The notes under the pieces were generated by a model. It was not told where the DNA came from and searched no databases. It saw only the letters and a program-made list of their open reading frames with translations. Below, piece by piece: positions 8,422 to 13,370 of a stretch of 64,000 nt of DNA (position 1 is the first letter of the stretch; each line of letters starts with the position of its first letter). The DNA comes from a virus. The translations under genes were made by a program, and so were the position numbers. The stretch is taken from IMG/VR virus record IMGVR_UViG_3300036652_000269, positions 1 through 64,000 of that record, one strand, 5' to 3'.

Positions 8422-8667
8422 TTACAGACCACCCCGACCTGCGTATTCCAACAGAGCCTTGATGGACAACTGCTGCCCCGGCTTGCGTGGCAGCTTGCGG
8501 ACGACCTTGCGCTGGCCCCGGCTGTCAGTGGTGTACAAGTACAGCCACTGCCGGGTGTGAGCCATGTCGGTGATGCGGTACTGGTTGCCGCCGACACGAA
8601 TGACCCGCCCCACTACTTGGGTAACGGGTATCAGTTCGAAAGCCGCGATGGCGTGACCGTTGAACAC
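8422..8667 (-). CDS. Small beta-rich hypothetical protein
   Basis: 81 residues from a GTG whose first base is the last base of the upstream TAG stop. The middle (VGRVIRVGGNQYRITDM, WLYLYTTDSRGQRKVV) reads as a small beta barrel with a basic C-terminus. Similar in style to 60753-61004. Function unknown. Confidence 0.65.
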   Translation of the reverse strand: MFNGHAIAAFELIPVTQVVGRVIRVGGNQYRITDMAHTRQWLYLYTTDSRGQRKVVRKLPRKPGQQLSIKALLEYAGRGGL

Positions 8668-8867
8668 TAGAGTTCGCAGGCACAGGGTGACGTGTGGTGC
8701 CGAACGCAGACCGACCTTGGGGGCTGAAGCACTTTGCGTGCTTTGTGTGTAGCGGTTGGACGGCCATTAGTGGTCTTGCACCGCTGGCCCCTAAGTGCAC
8801 CGCAGAACGGGCACTTGACGTTCGTGGAGTGGTCACGTGAGTAGTTCGCATAACCTGGCTTGGACAT
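8667..8867 (-). CDS. Small zinc-ribbon protein (CPxCGA...C...H type)
   Basis: 66 residues. The ATG at 8867 is preceded by GAAGGG at 9 bases. The core KCPFCGALRGQRCKT...HKAR matches the short actinophage and actinobacterial zinc-finger pattern C-x2-C-G-A-x3-G-x2-C-x10-H-x2-R. Such domains are usually DNA- or RNA-associated; the partner is unknown. It is the first gene of the leftward cluster, next to the long gene-poor stretch. Confidence 0.7.
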   Translation of the reverse strand: MSKPGYANYSRDHSTNVKCPFCGALRGQRCKTTNGRPTATHKARKVLQPPRSVCVRHHTSPCACEL

Positions 8868-9860
8868 GTCGTACATCCCTTCGTGGTTGATGGAGCAGGT
8901 TGGATGACTTGCGTCGTCCTGGCCAGGCACGTACCCGAATGGGTTGGATACGTGCATGACCAGCACGGCAAGGTCATCAGTCTTGCCGTACACGTGATGT
9001 GACGTGGTGCTAACGTCATTGTCTTTTGTAGAGCTGACCCGCTGGCCGATGTGCTTGTGACAGTCAACGCTGTCGAATAGCGACCCGGTTTCTATCGTCG
9101 TCCGCTTTCATACGCCGCTTGTGTAGGGCTACGGGCTTGGGCGCTTGTATTGATCCCGGCGATCACGTAAGTGCCTTCCGGTTTCCTGGTGCTGTCCCCA
9201 AGCTGAAGTGGAGCGATCCCACCTGCTTGCTTCCGCAGTACCGCCCATGATGCTGGCGCGTACTAGTTACATGTGCACGATATCTACCTTGTCCCTGGCG
9301 GGTGGCTTACATCTTGACTATGCGTCTGACAGGCTATCGATTGTCCTGTCCCCGTAGTTCTGAGTCGAACACCTAGCTGCATCGTTTCCGGCACTTGCCG
9401 TAGTTTGATTCCGATGGCACAACGGGCCACCATCGGTTGCACTAGGTTCGCAGGGTCTTCGTCGTTATCGGGTAGGCGCACCCTGCCGTTGCGTTGGATG
9501 CCTTGCATGATTTTGCGTCATGTCTTCCGCCCGATTGTGCTGGGATTCGCTAAGTCCCGGTTCACCACCCCGAGCTACTTTGTTGTTGCCGCTGCTGTTC
9601 ACAACCGCACGGACGTACGTCCAAGTGTGCGGGTAAGCGTGAAGCTGGCCCAAGTAGGAGGTGGCCGATTCCGACCCCTGCTATGTCGTCACTGTCCAGT
9701 TATGAAGGTTCGAAGGTTCGGCGCTTTGAGGGTCTTGCTGCGGACCCTGCGGCCCGACTGCCCGGATTTGAGTTCACCAGGGGCTTCCGTCGTGCCCTAC
9801 CTTGCCCACCGCGCTAGCGGCTTGACGCTAGCTTAGTGCAAAAACGACCCAGGTCGCAAT
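8868..9860. other. Gene-poor stretch of about 1 kb
   Basis: No frame here has a convincing start, ribosome binding site and protein-like composition on either strand. Short hairpins occur (for example CCGATGG/CCATCGG near 9411-9437 and CGGCA/TGCCG near 9390-9402), but I found no tRNA: the only TTCGA-like segment, near 9364, cannot form a T-stem. The GC-rich sequence lies between divergent transcription units and could hold leftward promoters, a small RNA, decayed genes or a replication origin; none can be demonstrated by reading. Confidence 0.4.
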
Positions 9861-9861
9861 A

Positions 9862-10032
9862 CCAAACCGGACATTCGCCCAAGCACTTTTCGGACATTTC
9901 AGGACAAAATATCGGGGCAAACCAGACATTATAACCCATACAGACCACCGCATACTAGGGCAAACCGGACATAATGACCCGTCCAGCTGGCCAAACCTGT
10001 CCGCATAGTGGACTGTCGTCCAGATAGTGGAC
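9862..10032. repeat. Iteron-like repeats and two GTCC-N7-GGAC elements
   Basis: Related direct repeats with core CAAACCGGACAT occur at 9862-9875, 9918-9930 and 9961-9973, with a weaker copy (TTTCGGACATTT) at 9888-9899. The pair at 9914-9938 and 9957-9981 agrees over 25 bases with 5 differences. They are followed by two interrupted palindromes, GTCC-GCATAGT-GGAC (9999-10013) and GTCC-AGATAGT-GGAC (10018-10032), offset by 19 bases. Their position upstream of the H1-like gene and the replication cluster suggests operators or replication iterons. Confidence 0.6.
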
Positions 10033-10060
10033 AGCCCAGGATCGCTACGGCATAGGCAGT

Positions 10061-10089
10061 TTCACATCGACAATGTGAACGTGTAGTAT
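10061..10089 (+). promoter_or_regulatory. Promoter with operator palindrome for the rightward cluster
   Basis: TTCACA (10061-10066) and TAGTAT (10084-10089) are separated by 17 bases, a sigma-70-like promoter pointing into the H1-like gene. The -35 hexamer sits inside a perfect 7-bp palindrome TTCACAT-CGACA-ATGTGAA (10061-10079), which would let a dimeric regulator block it. The H1-like ATG follows at 10138 after CTGAAAGGTAA. Confidence 0.55.
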
Positions 10090-10137
10090 CTACTCGATAG
10101 CTAGCCCATCCAACCCATCCATCTGAAAGGTAAACTC

Positions 10138-10812
10138 ATGTCTGAAGCCACTGCTGAATCGGCACCCCGTACTGCTCGTAAGCGGGTGGCCAAGAAGGCT
10201 GTCGCGGAGAACACCACCCAGACCACCCCGACCGCTGACACGGATGCAGCCCCGGCACGCAAGGTGGCCCGGAAGGCTGTCAAAAATACAGCTGAGAAGC
10301 CCACCACTCCGGTCAAGAAGACGGCCCGGAAGGCGACCAGCAGACCGGCTGTCAAGAAGACAGCTGAGAAGACTGCGGCCAAGACGACTGTCAAGAAGAC
10401 AGCCACCAAGTCCCCGGCCAAGACGACTGTCAAGAAGACAGCTGCCAAGTCCCCGGCCAAGAAGGCGGCTCCGGCTGTGGAACGGGAACGCAACGAACAC
10501 GGCTACGTCGTCGGCACGGACATGGCTCTGATCAGCGACATGCTGGTGGCCGGTGGCGAAACCCGTGGGGAAGTAACGGACCGCATCCGTGGGTCTATCG
10601 AACCGACAACCCGTGGTGGCCAGCCCAAGAACGTGTCGTCGCTCGTTTCGATGGCCATCAAGGAACTGACTGCACGCGGATACACGCAGGAAGCAACGTG
10701 GCGCTTCATTCCGCCCGTAGCATCTTCGGACAGCGGTCGCAAGTCCACCGCTGCGCCCGCTGCCAAGAAGACCGCCAGGCGTGCGACAGGCCGGGCTAAG
10801 GCAAAGGGCTGA
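10138..10812 (+). CDS. Histone-H1-like Lys/Ala-rich protein
   Basis: 224 residues, with AAAGG before the ATG. Residues 1-118 are an Ala/Lys/Thr-rich tail built from repeated VKKTA / SPAK units like bacterial and eukaryotic H1 tails. A small globular region follows (about 119-195, from ERNEHGYVVGTD to QEATWRF) and a second basic tail closes the protein. Such proteins bind DNA non-specifically and compact it or silence genes. It is first in the rightward cluster. Three TGTC-N5-GACA copies fall on its VKKT repeats. A hairpin with a T-rich tail follows, so it may be expressed above its downstream neighbours. Confidence 0.75.
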   Translation: MSEATAESAPRTARKRVAKKAVAENTTQTTPTADTDAAPARKVARKAVKNTAEKPTTPVKKTARKATSRPAVKKTAEKTAAKTTVKKTATKSPAKTTVKKTAAKSPAKKAAPAVERERNEHGYVVGTDMALISDMLVAGGETRGEVTDRIRGSIEPTTRGGQPKNVSSLVSMAIKELTARGYTQEATWRFIPPVASSDSGRKSTAAPAAKKTARRATGRAKAKG

Positions 10813-10855
10813 CGGGTCCGGTAACGTCGTCATACGATGCCGTGGTCTGGAAGGG

Positions 10856-10910
10856 CCCGGTTCCCCGCATATCGGTTGGGAGGCCGATGGGGAACCGGGT
10901 TCTTTCTATC
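10856..10910 (+). terminator. Intrinsic terminator after the H1-like gene
   Basis: CCCGGTTCCCC (10856-10866) and GGGGAACCGGG (10889-10899) form a perfect 11-bp stem followed by TTCTTTCTATCTT on the plus strand. It lies between the H1-like gene and the helicase start and would cut most transcripts, leaving lower expression of helicase and primase. Confidence 0.65.
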
Positions 10911-10945: not shown

Positions 10946-12217
10946 GTGTCTTCATCACCGGAAAGATTGCTGCTTAGCTCCATTGTGCGGGACGGCGACA
11001 TGAACGTGGCCATCCAACACGGGCTAGCCCCCGACATGTTCCACGCCTTCCCCGACGAATGGCTGTGGATGCAGACGTACTACATGAAGTACAAGCGGTC
11101 CCCGTCGAAGCTCGCGTTCAAGCACAAGTTCCCCGAGTTCCGGATCGCGGCTGTCAATGACACAAGTCACTTCGCGGATGAAGTCCGACGCCACCACGCA
11201 CGCACGTTGCTGACCGGCACACTCAGGGACGCTAGCAACCTGATAGCTGACGGCAAGCTGGACGCAGCCTTGATGGCCCTACAAGGGTCCGTGGTCGGGA
11301 TCGCAGCGGGTATGTCGGACAACGTTGACCAGGACATCTTCTCGAACTATGAAGACACCCTGGTCGAAGTAGACCGGCGATGGAAACTTGTCGAAACGAA
11401 AGGTTACAGCGGTATTCCCACCGGCATCCCGACCCTGGACGAACGGGTCGGCGGGTTCAACGCTGGAGAACTCTGGTTGTTTGCCGCCCGGTTGGGTGAA
11501 GGAAAGTCGTGGACCTTGCAGTCGATGGCCCTGGCGGCGGCGATGGAAGAGTACGTCATCCAGTTCAACGCGCTGGAACAGTCCCGTGCCCAGGTGTCAA
11601 TGCGTATCCATGCGCTGTTGTCGGGGTCTATCGGCAAGACAGTCTTCAGCAACACCGACTTGATGCAAGGCAAGGGCTACGACCCCGGCGAGTACAGGCT
11701 CTTTCTGAAAGACATGAAGGAAACCATCAAGGGCAAGTTACACGTGTCGGATTCCCCACGACTGACACCACTGGGCATCGCTGCACAGATCGAGAAGAAC
11801 AAGCCTCACGCGGTCTACGTGGACTACGTGCAGCTGATGTCGAAGGGGAAGGACTGGCAGGACATCGCAGCCATCAGCGGTGAACTGAAGGCCGTCGCCA
11901 TGGAGTACCAGGTTCCCGTCATCGGGGCAGCCCAGCTGAATCGTGACGCAGCAGGTGGCAAGGGCAACGCAGGCCCCGAAAAACTGGGTGGGTCGGACGC
12001 ACTGGGCCAGGACGCCGATGGTGTGGTCACCAGCAAGCAACTCAGTGAACGTGTCATCCGGCACATGCTGGCCAAGAACCGCAACGGTCCCGGTGGGCAG
12101 ACGTTCTACATCCACTTCGATCCCACCCAGGGCATCTACAAAGAGGTCAGCGCCAACCGGGCCCGCGACCTGATGGACGAAGACGAAGACAGGCGCGACC
12201 GGGAAGAGACCAAGTGA
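10946..12217 (+). CDS. DnaB-like replicative helicase
   Basis: 423 residues from a GTG at 10946 (SSSPERLLLSSIVRDGD), chosen because the terminator hairpin lies just upstream; the open frame extends to a GTG at 10781 that overlaps the H1-like gene. The N-terminal half is a DnaB-N-like helical region. The RecA-fold domain begins near YSGIPTGIPTLDERVGGF, with a Walker A-like ARLGEGKSW loop, a Walker B AVYVDYVQLM and a GAAQLNRDA segment as in DnaB/Gp4D-type helicases. It unwinds the fork and probably works with the primase two genes downstream. Stop and next start overlap (TGATG). A TATC-N5-GACA variant lies just before its start. Confidence 0.85.
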   Translation: MSSSPERLLLSSIVRDGDMNVAIQHGLAPDMFHAFPDEWLWMQTYYMKYKRSPSKLAFKHKFPEFRIAAVNDTSHFADEVRRHHARTLLTGTLRDASNLIADGKLDAALMALQGSVVGIAAGMSDNVDQDIFSNYEDTLVEVDRRWKLVETKGYSGIPTGIPTLDERVGGFNAGELWLFAARLGEGKSWTLQSMALAAAMEEYVIQFNALEQSRAQVSMRIHALLSGSIGKTVFSNTDLMQGKGYDPGEYRLFLKDMKETIKGKLHVSDSPRLTPLGIAAQIEKNKPHAVYVDYVQLMSKGKDWQDIAAISGELKAVAMEYQVPVIGAAQLNRDAAGGKGNAGPEKLGGSDALGQDADGVVTSKQLSERVIRHMLAKNRNGPGGQTFYIHFDPTQGIYKEVSANRARDLMDEDEDRRDREETK

Positions 12218-12411
12218 TGCGCTTCTTCCGGCGACTACGTGCACGACATGTCTGCAAGAAAAAGGGGCACGGTCGTCTGGTGCGGGTAGTGGACCAGTAT
12301 CACGCATTACCGGAAATGAACTACCTGACGGCCGTCCCCATGGTCATCGACAGACAGCACTACGAATGTGCTCGGTGTGGGAAACACATCCGACCTGCCG
12401 GGGTGCAGTGA
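12217..12411 (+). CDS. Small zinc-binding protein
   Basis: 64 residues, coupled at both ends by TGATG junctions to helicase and primase. The N-terminus is strongly basic (MRFFRRLRARHVCKKKGHG) and the C-terminus has a zinc-knuckle-like YECARCGKH. With one upstream Cys/His pair this could form a single zinc site. Its place between helicase and primase suggests a replication accessory role, by context only. Confidence 0.65.
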   Translation: MRFFRRLRARHVCKKKGHGRLVRVVDQYHALPEMNYLTAVPMVIDRQHYECARCGKHIRPAGVQ

Positions 12412-13370
12412 TGGCACGACGGTTCGATGAGTTCGCAGAGAAGTATCTGAACATCAGTCTGCGGTCCGGTCCCGAATACATGGTGCAGTGCGTCTTTCAC
12501 GATGACAGTCGGGCGTCGATGCAGTTCAATGCTGATCGCGGCCTCTTCGTCTGCTTCACCTGCGGCATGGGTGGCGGGATGCGGAAGCTGATGGCCGAGT
12601 TCGGTTTGCGGTCCATCGAAGAATCGTTGGACGTGTCCGACATCCTGGCCCGGCTGGACGAGATCGATCGTCGTGACGGCAAGCCTGCCAAAGACGACCT
12701 GCCGGTGCTACCGGAAAGCTACCTACGCCGGTTCTGCGGGCCGCTGGACTACTGGGAAGACCGGGGGCTGTCGATGGACACCATCAAGCGGTTCGGGCTG
12801 GGCAGCGACCCGCTAGAGACCGAGATAGCCACCATCCCGATCCGCAACGTGTCGGGCGGGCTGTTGGGTGTCATCAAGCGGGATGGTTCTGATGATGCCC
12901 CGATCCGCTACAAGTACCCCAAGGGCTTCAAACGGTCCCGGCACATGTTTGGGTCATGGCTTGTCGAAGAGACAGATTCCAACCTGGCCGTGGTGGTCGA
13001 AGGGTCTGTCGATTCGATGATGGTCTGGGAAGCGGGTCTGGTGGGCCTTGCCCAGTACGGGTCCACCATCGGACGACCTCAGATCAAGTTGATGCTGGAA
13101 CTGGGGATCGAACGAGTCGTCTTGCTGTATGACAACCCGGCCATCGACAAGGCAGGTGCACTGGCTATCCGGTATGCGCTGGGCTGGCACCGGGAAAAGG
13201 ATCGCAAGACCGGCAATGTCACCGAACGCTACGACCCGACTACCGACCTCGCACGGTTCTTCCAGGTCGCCATCGGGCAGTACCCCACCAAGCCGCGTCG
13301 GGTGAAGGACCCCGGTGCCATGACGGTCAGCCAGATTCAAACTGCGGTTGGCTCCGCACTGGCTGCCTGA
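12411..13370 (+). CDS. DnaG-like primase (zinc finger plus TOPRIM)
   Basis: 319 residues; ATG overlaps the upstream TGA. The N-terminal zinc domain is CVFHDDSRASMQFN...FVCFTCGMGG (C-H-C-C, about residues 27-54), as in DnaG-type primases. The TOPRIM half has the VVVEGSVDSMMVWEAG motif (about 198-213) with the catalytic Glu and Asp, then LLYDNPAIDKAG where DnaG usually has DGDxAG. It makes RNA primers for lagging-strand synthesis, presumably with the DnaB-like helicase. A TGTC-N5-GACA copy lies just before the TOPRIM motif (12962-12974). Confidence 0.85.
   Translation: MARRFDEFAEKYLNISLRSGPEYMVQCVFHDDSRASMQFNADRGLFVCFTCGMGGGMRKLMAEFGLRSIEESLDVSDILARLDEIDRRDGKPAKDDLPVLPESYLRRFCGPLDYWEDRGLSMDTIKRFGLGSDPLETEIATIPIRNVSGGLLGVIKRDGSDDAPIRYKYPKGFKRSRHMFGSWLVEETDSNLAVVVEGSVDSMMVWEAGLVGLAQYGSTIGRPQIKLMLELGIERVVLLYDNPAIDKAGALAIRYALGWHREKDRKTGNVTERYDPTTDLARFFQVAIGQYPTKPRRVKDPGAMTVSQIQTAVGSALAA

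What the first reader, a model, noticed from the sequence alone, without database searches (positions are those of the whole stretch)
9862..10089. Repeats and a -35-overlapping palindrome upstream of the replication cluster
Direct repeats of a CAAACCGGACAT core, two GTCC-N7-GGAC elements 19 bases apart, and a perfect TTCACAT-N5-ATGTGAA palindrome precede a TTCACA-N17-TAGTAT promoter for the H1-like, helicase and primase genes. The palindrome covers the -35 box. This looks like a master control switch and possibly an origin of replication, since iteron-like repeats sit next to a helicase/primase cluster.
Basis: partly seen in the sequence, partly recalled or inferred. Interest (0 to 1): 0.6.

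Follow-up and report, generated by a model that had tools for sequence, protein, structure and literature searches.

The report
Divergent phage promoter-operator region
A 1.1-1.3 kb non-coding stretch in a virus of (probably) actinobacteria carries repeats and mirror-image sites that look like a switch for a DNA-binding-protein gene next to the replication genes; it is probably not an iteron origin, and in related phages the same stretch makes a long folded RNA running the other way.

Summary
The repeat family and the twin GTCC-N7-GGAC dyads are far beyond chance (0/2000 shuffles each). The 7-bp-arm palindrome (6% of shuffles) and the 9/12 promoter match are not significant alone. They gain weight from relatives: all eight examined Gordonia rubripertincta phages have a different palindrome (TTGCCA-CAT-TGGCAA) whose left arm is the -35 of a TTGCCA-N17-TACNGT promoter before the orthologous H1-like gene. 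A relative, L093, keeps the dyad (13/15) at the same distance from the start codon.

Best reading: a divergent operator-promoter region whose rightward promoter serves chiefly the H1-like gene, since a terminator-like hairpin follows that gene in most relatives. "Iterons/origin" is not supported: copies are few, irregularly spaced and not shared by close relatives, and GC skew shows nothing at 10 kb; an origin is not excluded.

Beyond the coordinates, the left 0.8 kb of the same region in Gordonia relatives is a structured RNA read leftward (11-12 compensatory pairs versus 3-4 in shuffled alignments; coding controls negative). No Rfam family matched. The window's counterpart is inferred from position and non-coding character only.

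The parts
9863..9874 (+). Direct repeat copy 1, CAAACCGGACAT
9915..9943 (+). Direct repeat copy 2 (29-nt unit; core CAAACCAGACAT 9918-9929). A perfect TATAAT lies on the minus strand at 9933-9928, without a -35
   Evidence: no leftward promoter of 8/12 or more found here
9958..9986 (+). Direct repeat copy 3 (29-nt unit; core CAAACCGGACAT 9961-9972)
9999..10013 (+). Dyad 1, GTCCGCATAGTGGAC, putative operator (-139 from the H1-like ATG)
   Evidence: L093 has GTCCAGAATGTGGAC at -138
10018..10032 (+). Dyad 2, GTCCAGATAGTGGAC, putative operator (-120 from the ATG)
10061..10079 (+). Palindrome TTCACAT-N5-ATGTGAA over the -35 box, putative repressor operator
   Evidence: same layout, other sequence, in Gordonia phages
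10061..10089 (+). Predicted rightward promoter TTCACA-N17-TAGTAT
   Evidence: equivalent promoter 76-98 nt before the H1-like gene in GMA6 and all Gordonia relatives
10125..10130 (+). Ribosome-binding-site-like GAAAGG before ATG 10138
   Evidence: read from sequence
10138..10812 (+). H1-like gene: Lys/Ala/Pro-rich N-terminal part plus conserved ~80-aa C-terminal domain (10471-10719) predicted as three helices and a beta hairpin
10853..10902 (+). Terminator/attenuator-like hairpin (-35.6 kcal/mol) followed by TTTCTATCTT, between the H1-like gene and the helicase
10946..12217 (+). DnaB-like helicase (open frame from 10781; homology starts at residue 56-59, so start placed at GTG 10946, inferred)
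12366..13370 (+). DnaG-like primase (CHC2 zinc ribbon, Toprim)
8868..9840 (-). Non-coding counterpart, by position, of the structured leftward leader RNA of the Gordonia relatives; structure not shown in the window itself (hairpin 8985-8890 apart)
   Evidence: for the window; 55, 61, 107, 115 for the relatives
8667..8867 (-). First leftward gene, small phage zinc-finger protein (start inferred at ATG 8867; GTG 8993 is the alternative)

Best explanation
The stretch is the right half of a divergent control region between two opposed operons. A sigma-70-type promoter (10061-10089) fires rightward into the H1-like DNA-binding-protein gene and, through a terminator-like hairpin, at a lower level into helicase and primase. 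A dimeric regulator binding the 10061-10079 palindrome would sit on the -35 box and shut the promoter. The twin dyads about 30 bp upstream, and the CAAACCGGACAT repeats further up between the two opposed transcription units, are sites for a second regulator or activator of one or both sides. The H1-like protein, with its basic tail and its folded C-terminal domain, is a plausible autoregulator. Shown: the sites, their statistics, the non-coding gap, the recurring layout in relatives, the hairpin after the H1-like gene. Inferred: that the sites are bound, by what, and that the palindrome represses.
For: Repeats and dyads 0/2000 in shuffles and confined to this place. Palindrome with left arm = -35 and N17 to the -10 recurs in eight Gordonia rubripertincta phages with different bases (TTGCCAcatTGGCAA). 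The dyad recurs in L093, 13/15 identical, -138 versus -139 from the ATG, and its CCAGAATGTGG core in ChisanaKitsune (background at one mismatch 0.41 per kb). Gene order is conserved: helicase/primase one way, AAA/CobT-VWA the other, with gaps of 0.4-1.2 kb. C-terminal domain of the H1-like protein conserved, AF2 mean pLDDT 90.9, three helices plus beta hairpin. Hairpin after the H1-like gene in most relatives.
Against: The palindrome (6% of shuffles) and the 9/12 promoter match are weak alone. GMA6, L093, L167 and G004 have no clean palindrome on the -35. Fold search gave only weak winged-helix matches (MarR, DtxR-type, IclR; E above 1), so DNA binding by the H1-like C-terminal domain is unproven. 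No repressor was identified.
Confidence: 0.62

Rival explanations
1. It is the lytic replication origin: the repeats are iterons, the neighbouring AT-rich DNA melts, and the adjacent helicase and primase load there.
For: Next to helicase and primase; the 300-bp stretch from 9841 is the second most AT-rich of the 64 kb (50% GC versus 60%); the right end is also AT-richer than the rest in GMA6 (39%) and Gordonia phages (47-49%); three same-strand repeats.
Against: Three full copies 55 and 43 bp apart, not a regular array; repeats absent at <=1 mismatch from relatives and found only by chance elsewhere; no GC-skew extreme at 10 kb (maximum 69 kb, minimum about 6 kb); no initiator gene recognised; AT-richness is also expected of promoters.
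Confidence: 0.15
2. An RNA-primed origin: the leftward non-coding RNA of the same gap primes replication, as proposed for the parABS-carrying cluster A prophages.
For: Structured leftward RNA beside the replication genes in relatives; actinobacteriophage precedent with a non-coding RNA required for prophage replication (PMC7157519).
Against: The precedent serves prophage maintenance next to parABS and is dispensable for lytic growth; no ParA, tyrosine integrase or serine recombinase found here; the RNA abuts the leftward operon like a leader.
Confidence: 0.08
3. Only the dyads and repeats matter, as activator sites for the leftward transcript (for instance for the TATAAT at 9933-9928); the -35 palindrome is a chance feature.
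For: Palindrome alone 6% in shuffles; repeats lie between the putative leftward and rightward starts; a perfect -10 hexamer without a -35 suggests an activated promoter.
Against: The -35-overlapping dyad recurs in eight Gordonia phages (closely related to each other) at the same place with a different sequence.
Confidence: 0.15

Closest known systems
Divergent phage early control regions with operators overlapping promoters (lambda OR/OL type; general knowledge)
   Same: Opposed transcription units, a dyad covering the -35 box, repeated secondary sites
   Different: No CI/Cro-like repressor pair or integrase identified; the adjacent DNA-binding-protein gene has an H1-like tail; a long structured leader RNA on the other arm in relatives
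Bendigovirus/Chidieberevirus intergenic region (Gordonia phages GMA6, ChisanaKitsune, Kabocha, FlyingTortilla and others)
   Same: Same flanking genes and gap of about 1.05-1.17 kb; rightward promoter before the H1-like gene; -35 palindrome in the rubripertincta phages
   Different: No sequence similarity in the gap by nhmmer or blastn; their repeats differ; the window lacks the recognisable leftward promoter and the GTACTGCG...CACGCGAGCT motif
Iteron-type origins
   Same: Short same-strand repeats near replication genes
   Different: Irregular spacing, few copies, no initiator recognised, not conserved
RNA-based origins of parABS cluster A mycobacteriophages (PMC7157519)
   Same: Non-coding RNA in an intergenic region of an actinobacteriophage
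   Different: No ParA or integrase here; the RNA abuts an operon of zinc-finger, AAA and CobT-like genes
GOLLD and ROOL large phage RNAs (PMC12286853)
   Same: Phage-encoded structured RNA of 600-1000 nt
   Different: No Rfam match; no tRNA genes in the window; leader position before an operon

Membership tests
Iteron-type replication origin | Several regularly spaced copies of a 17-22 bp repeat | tested here: not met
   Three 12-bp cores 55 and 43 bp apart
Iteron-type replication origin | Cognate initiator (Rep/O-like) gene | tested here: inconclusive
   Neighbours are H1-like, DnaB-like and DnaG-like; many small genes unassigned
Iteron-type replication origin | Replication starts there | not testable with these tools
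   Only GC skew available, no signal at 10 kb
Phage operator-promoter region | Dyad overlapping a promoter element | tested here: met
   10061-10079 over the -35; same layout in eight relatives
Phage operator-promoter region | Bound by a phage regulator, affects transcription | not testable with these tools
   Needs binding and reporter assays
Phage operator-promoter region | Sites conserved beyond chance in relatives | tested here: met
   Dyad in L093 at the same position; -35 palindrome layout in Gordonia phages; repeats not conserved
RNA-based prophage origin (cluster A type) | parABS cassette next to the non-coding RNA | tested here: not met
   No ParA-type ATPase PF13614 in the 89-kb record
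GOLLD / ROOL RNA | Match to the Rfam covariance model | tested here: not met
   No match in window or relatives at gathering, none to E 5 in window 8900-10150 or the GMA6 gap
Winged-helix DNA-binding protein (H1-like C-terminal domain) | Structural match to a winged-helix fold | tested here: inconclusive
   Three helices plus beta hairpin, pLDDT 90.9; best regulator matches E above 1

The most novel reading that the evidence does not exclude
Probability: 0.35. Interest if true: 0.65.

Novelty: new member of a known kind. Interest (0 to 1): 0.42.

Why it matters
Control regions of these GMA6-like actinobacteriophages are uncharacterised in what I could search. The comparison gives concrete sites to test (a -35 dyad, a conserved GTCC-N7-GGAC dyad) and a candidate autoregulator. 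It also shows that a gap annotated without genes, or with a tiny ORF, in at least nine sequenced Gordonia phages holds a structured RNA of about 0.6-0.85 kb with no Rfam match, which can be checked at once by RNA-seq of cultured phages.

Tried and rejected
Helicase, AAA and primase single-protein scans of viral contigs gave no usable relatives; alignments and INPHARED tblastn did. Helicase scan of prokaryote genomes: none. The repeat as a pattern in viral contigs: two hits in one unrelated phage type, no similarity to the window. The RNA motif as a pattern: GMA6 plus hits at roughly chance number; one promising hit (L254) lies inside an ORF. MFE z-scores do not separate the window's gap from coding DNA, so the RNA claim rests on covariation in relatives only. 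nhmmer between the gaps of the window, GMA6, L093 and L167: no similarity. The count of structure pairs was called once with a string of wrong length and replaced by my own counts. Rfam at E up to 5: nothing.

Full report
OBSERVATION. Three same-strand cores CAAACC(G/A)GACAT lie at 9863, 9918 and 9961; the last two belong to a 29-nt repeat. Two GTCC-N7-GGAC dyads lie at 9999 and 10018, and a perfect 7-bp-arm palindrome at 10061-10079 overlaps the -35 of TTCACA-N17-TAGTAT. In the whole 89,278-bp record no other repeat copy with up to one mismatch and no second palindrome exists. In 2000 dinucleotide shuffles of 9840-10137 the repeat family and the dyad pair never occurred, while an inverted repeat as good as the palindrome occurred in 6%. 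The promoter match is at chance level by itself. So the repeats and dyads are significant; the palindrome and promoter need outside support.

SURROUNDINGS. The finding is the right end of a gap of 1.14 kb (to GTG 8993) or 1.27 kb (to the more likely start ATG 8867, preceded by GAAGGG). Three-base periodicity drops out from about 9,000 to 10,050, part of the longest such run in the 64 kb. To the right lie an H1-like gene, a DnaB-like helicase (PHROG 19, E 7e-63) and a DnaG-like primase; to the left, reading the other way, a small zinc-finger gene, uncharacterised genes, a MoxR-type AAA ATPase and a VWA protein. No tyrosine integrase, serine recombinase or ParA ATPase was found in the record, so a lytic life style is likely, though the record may be incomplete.

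RELATIVES. tblastn found GMA6-like Gordonia phages and Brevibacterium phage Cantare with the same divergent order: helicase 42-46% and AAA 44-50% identical over the aligned proteins. Their gaps are 0.4-1.2 kb and mostly without genes. L093, L167 and G004 (IMG/VR) also carry the H1-like gene in the same place. In the eight rubripertincta phages examined, the H1-like gene is preceded by TTGCCA-N17-TAC(T/G)GT, with TTGCCA as the left arm of TTGCCAcatTGGCAA: the same geometry as in the window with different bases. GMA6 has TTGCCA-N18-TAGTGT with only a degenerate dyad. L093 keeps GTCCAGAATGTGGAC at -138 from its ATG (window: -139 and -120), and ChisanaKitsune keeps the core CCAGAATGTGG at -260. 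The CAAACCGGACAT repeats have no equivalent at up to one mismatch in any relative.

HOW FAR THE PROMOTER REACHES. Right after the H1-like gene stands a hairpin of -35.6 kcal/mol followed by TTTCTATCTT (10853-10902). Strong hairpins stand in the same gap in FlyingTortilla, ChisanaKitsune, L093 and L167, and shorter ones can be read in DalanDe, GMA6 and L092. The H1-like gene is therefore probably its own transcription unit, with helicase and primase reached by read-through or by another promoter.

CANDIDATE REGULATOR. The C-terminal ~80 residues of the H1-like protein are conserved in all these phages except Cantare, where no such gene was seen, and are predicted with confidence (mean pLDDT 90.9) as three helices plus a beta hairpin. 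Fold searches gave the GMA6 homologue and otherwise only weak winged-helix regulators. DNA binding is plausible, not shown.

THE OTHER HALF OF THE GAP. In the Gordonia phages the left ~830 bp is about 80% identical between the two clades. RNAalifold on the strand read leftward gives 12 pairs with compensatory changes in about eight helices and 2 broken pairs, against 4.0 +- 2.1 (maximum 8) and 6.8 in column-shuffled alignments; energy z -3.2, 0 of 40. The opposite strand gives z -1.4. With four phages, the same test on helicase and AAA coding DNA gives z between -1.0 and +1.6 and no excess of compensation, while the left gap gives z -3.2 and 11 versus 3.0 +- 1.9. Near-consensus leftward promoters stand just before this RNA in GMA6 (TTGACA-N17-CATAAT) and the ChisanaKitsune-type phages (TTGACT-N17-TATTAT or TATTGT), weaker in FlyingTortilla-type phages. 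An RNA module GTACTGCG-(variable hairpin)-CACGCGAGCT occurs once in GMA6 and twice in each Gordonia relative, on the leftward strand; no other exact copy was found among the loci then held. No Rfam family matches. For the window only position, length, lack of coding signal and a strong hairpin at the left end (z -4.6) argue for a counterpart: there is no sequence similarity, no MFE signal over the rest and no clear leftward promoter (a TATAAT at 9933-9928 lacks a -35).

INTERPRETATION. A divergent operator-promoter region is the best-supported reading. An origin stays possible, but its specific supports fail: spacing and number of repeats, conservation, GC skew. Only adjacency to helicase and primase and relative AT-richness remain, and both are expected of an early promoter region too.

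Noticed in passing
L087:4304-5133 and the same gap in L086, L088, L089, L228-L231; GMA6 L085:3980-5033: Structured leftward RNA of about 0.6-0.85 kb between the AAA/CobT operon and the H1-like gene in Gordonia phages, without Rfam match; repeated module GTACTGCG...CACGCGAGCT.
   Followed up: partly
window 10853-10902: Very stable terminator-like hairpin between the H1-like and helicase genes; strong hairpins also in this gap in several relatives.
   Followed up: partly
L243:11735-13597 and L243:6312-8861 (window record 75.7-77.6 kb and 70.3-72.9 kb): RecA-like gene and a ParB/methyltransferase-like gene, both apparently interrupted by intein-like insertions (judged by eye from the translations).
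   Followed up: no
L243:5363-6364: Arginase/agmatinase-like protein encoded by the phage (judged by eye from the translation).
   Followed up: no
L167:2560-5326: A 2.7-kb gap before the H1-like gene in IMGVR_UViG_3300028792_000003, with many GCAAGTCC-like repeats and one CAAAACGGACAC close to the window's repeat.
   Followed up: no
FlyingTortilla gp69, ScarletRaider gp68: Tiny annotated ORFs lie inside the structured RNA and are probably not genes.
   Followed up: no
Schomber L229: The gap is a mosaic: left part like Kabocha, right promoter part like ChisanaKitsune, which suggests recombination between the RNA and the promoter half.
   Followed up: no
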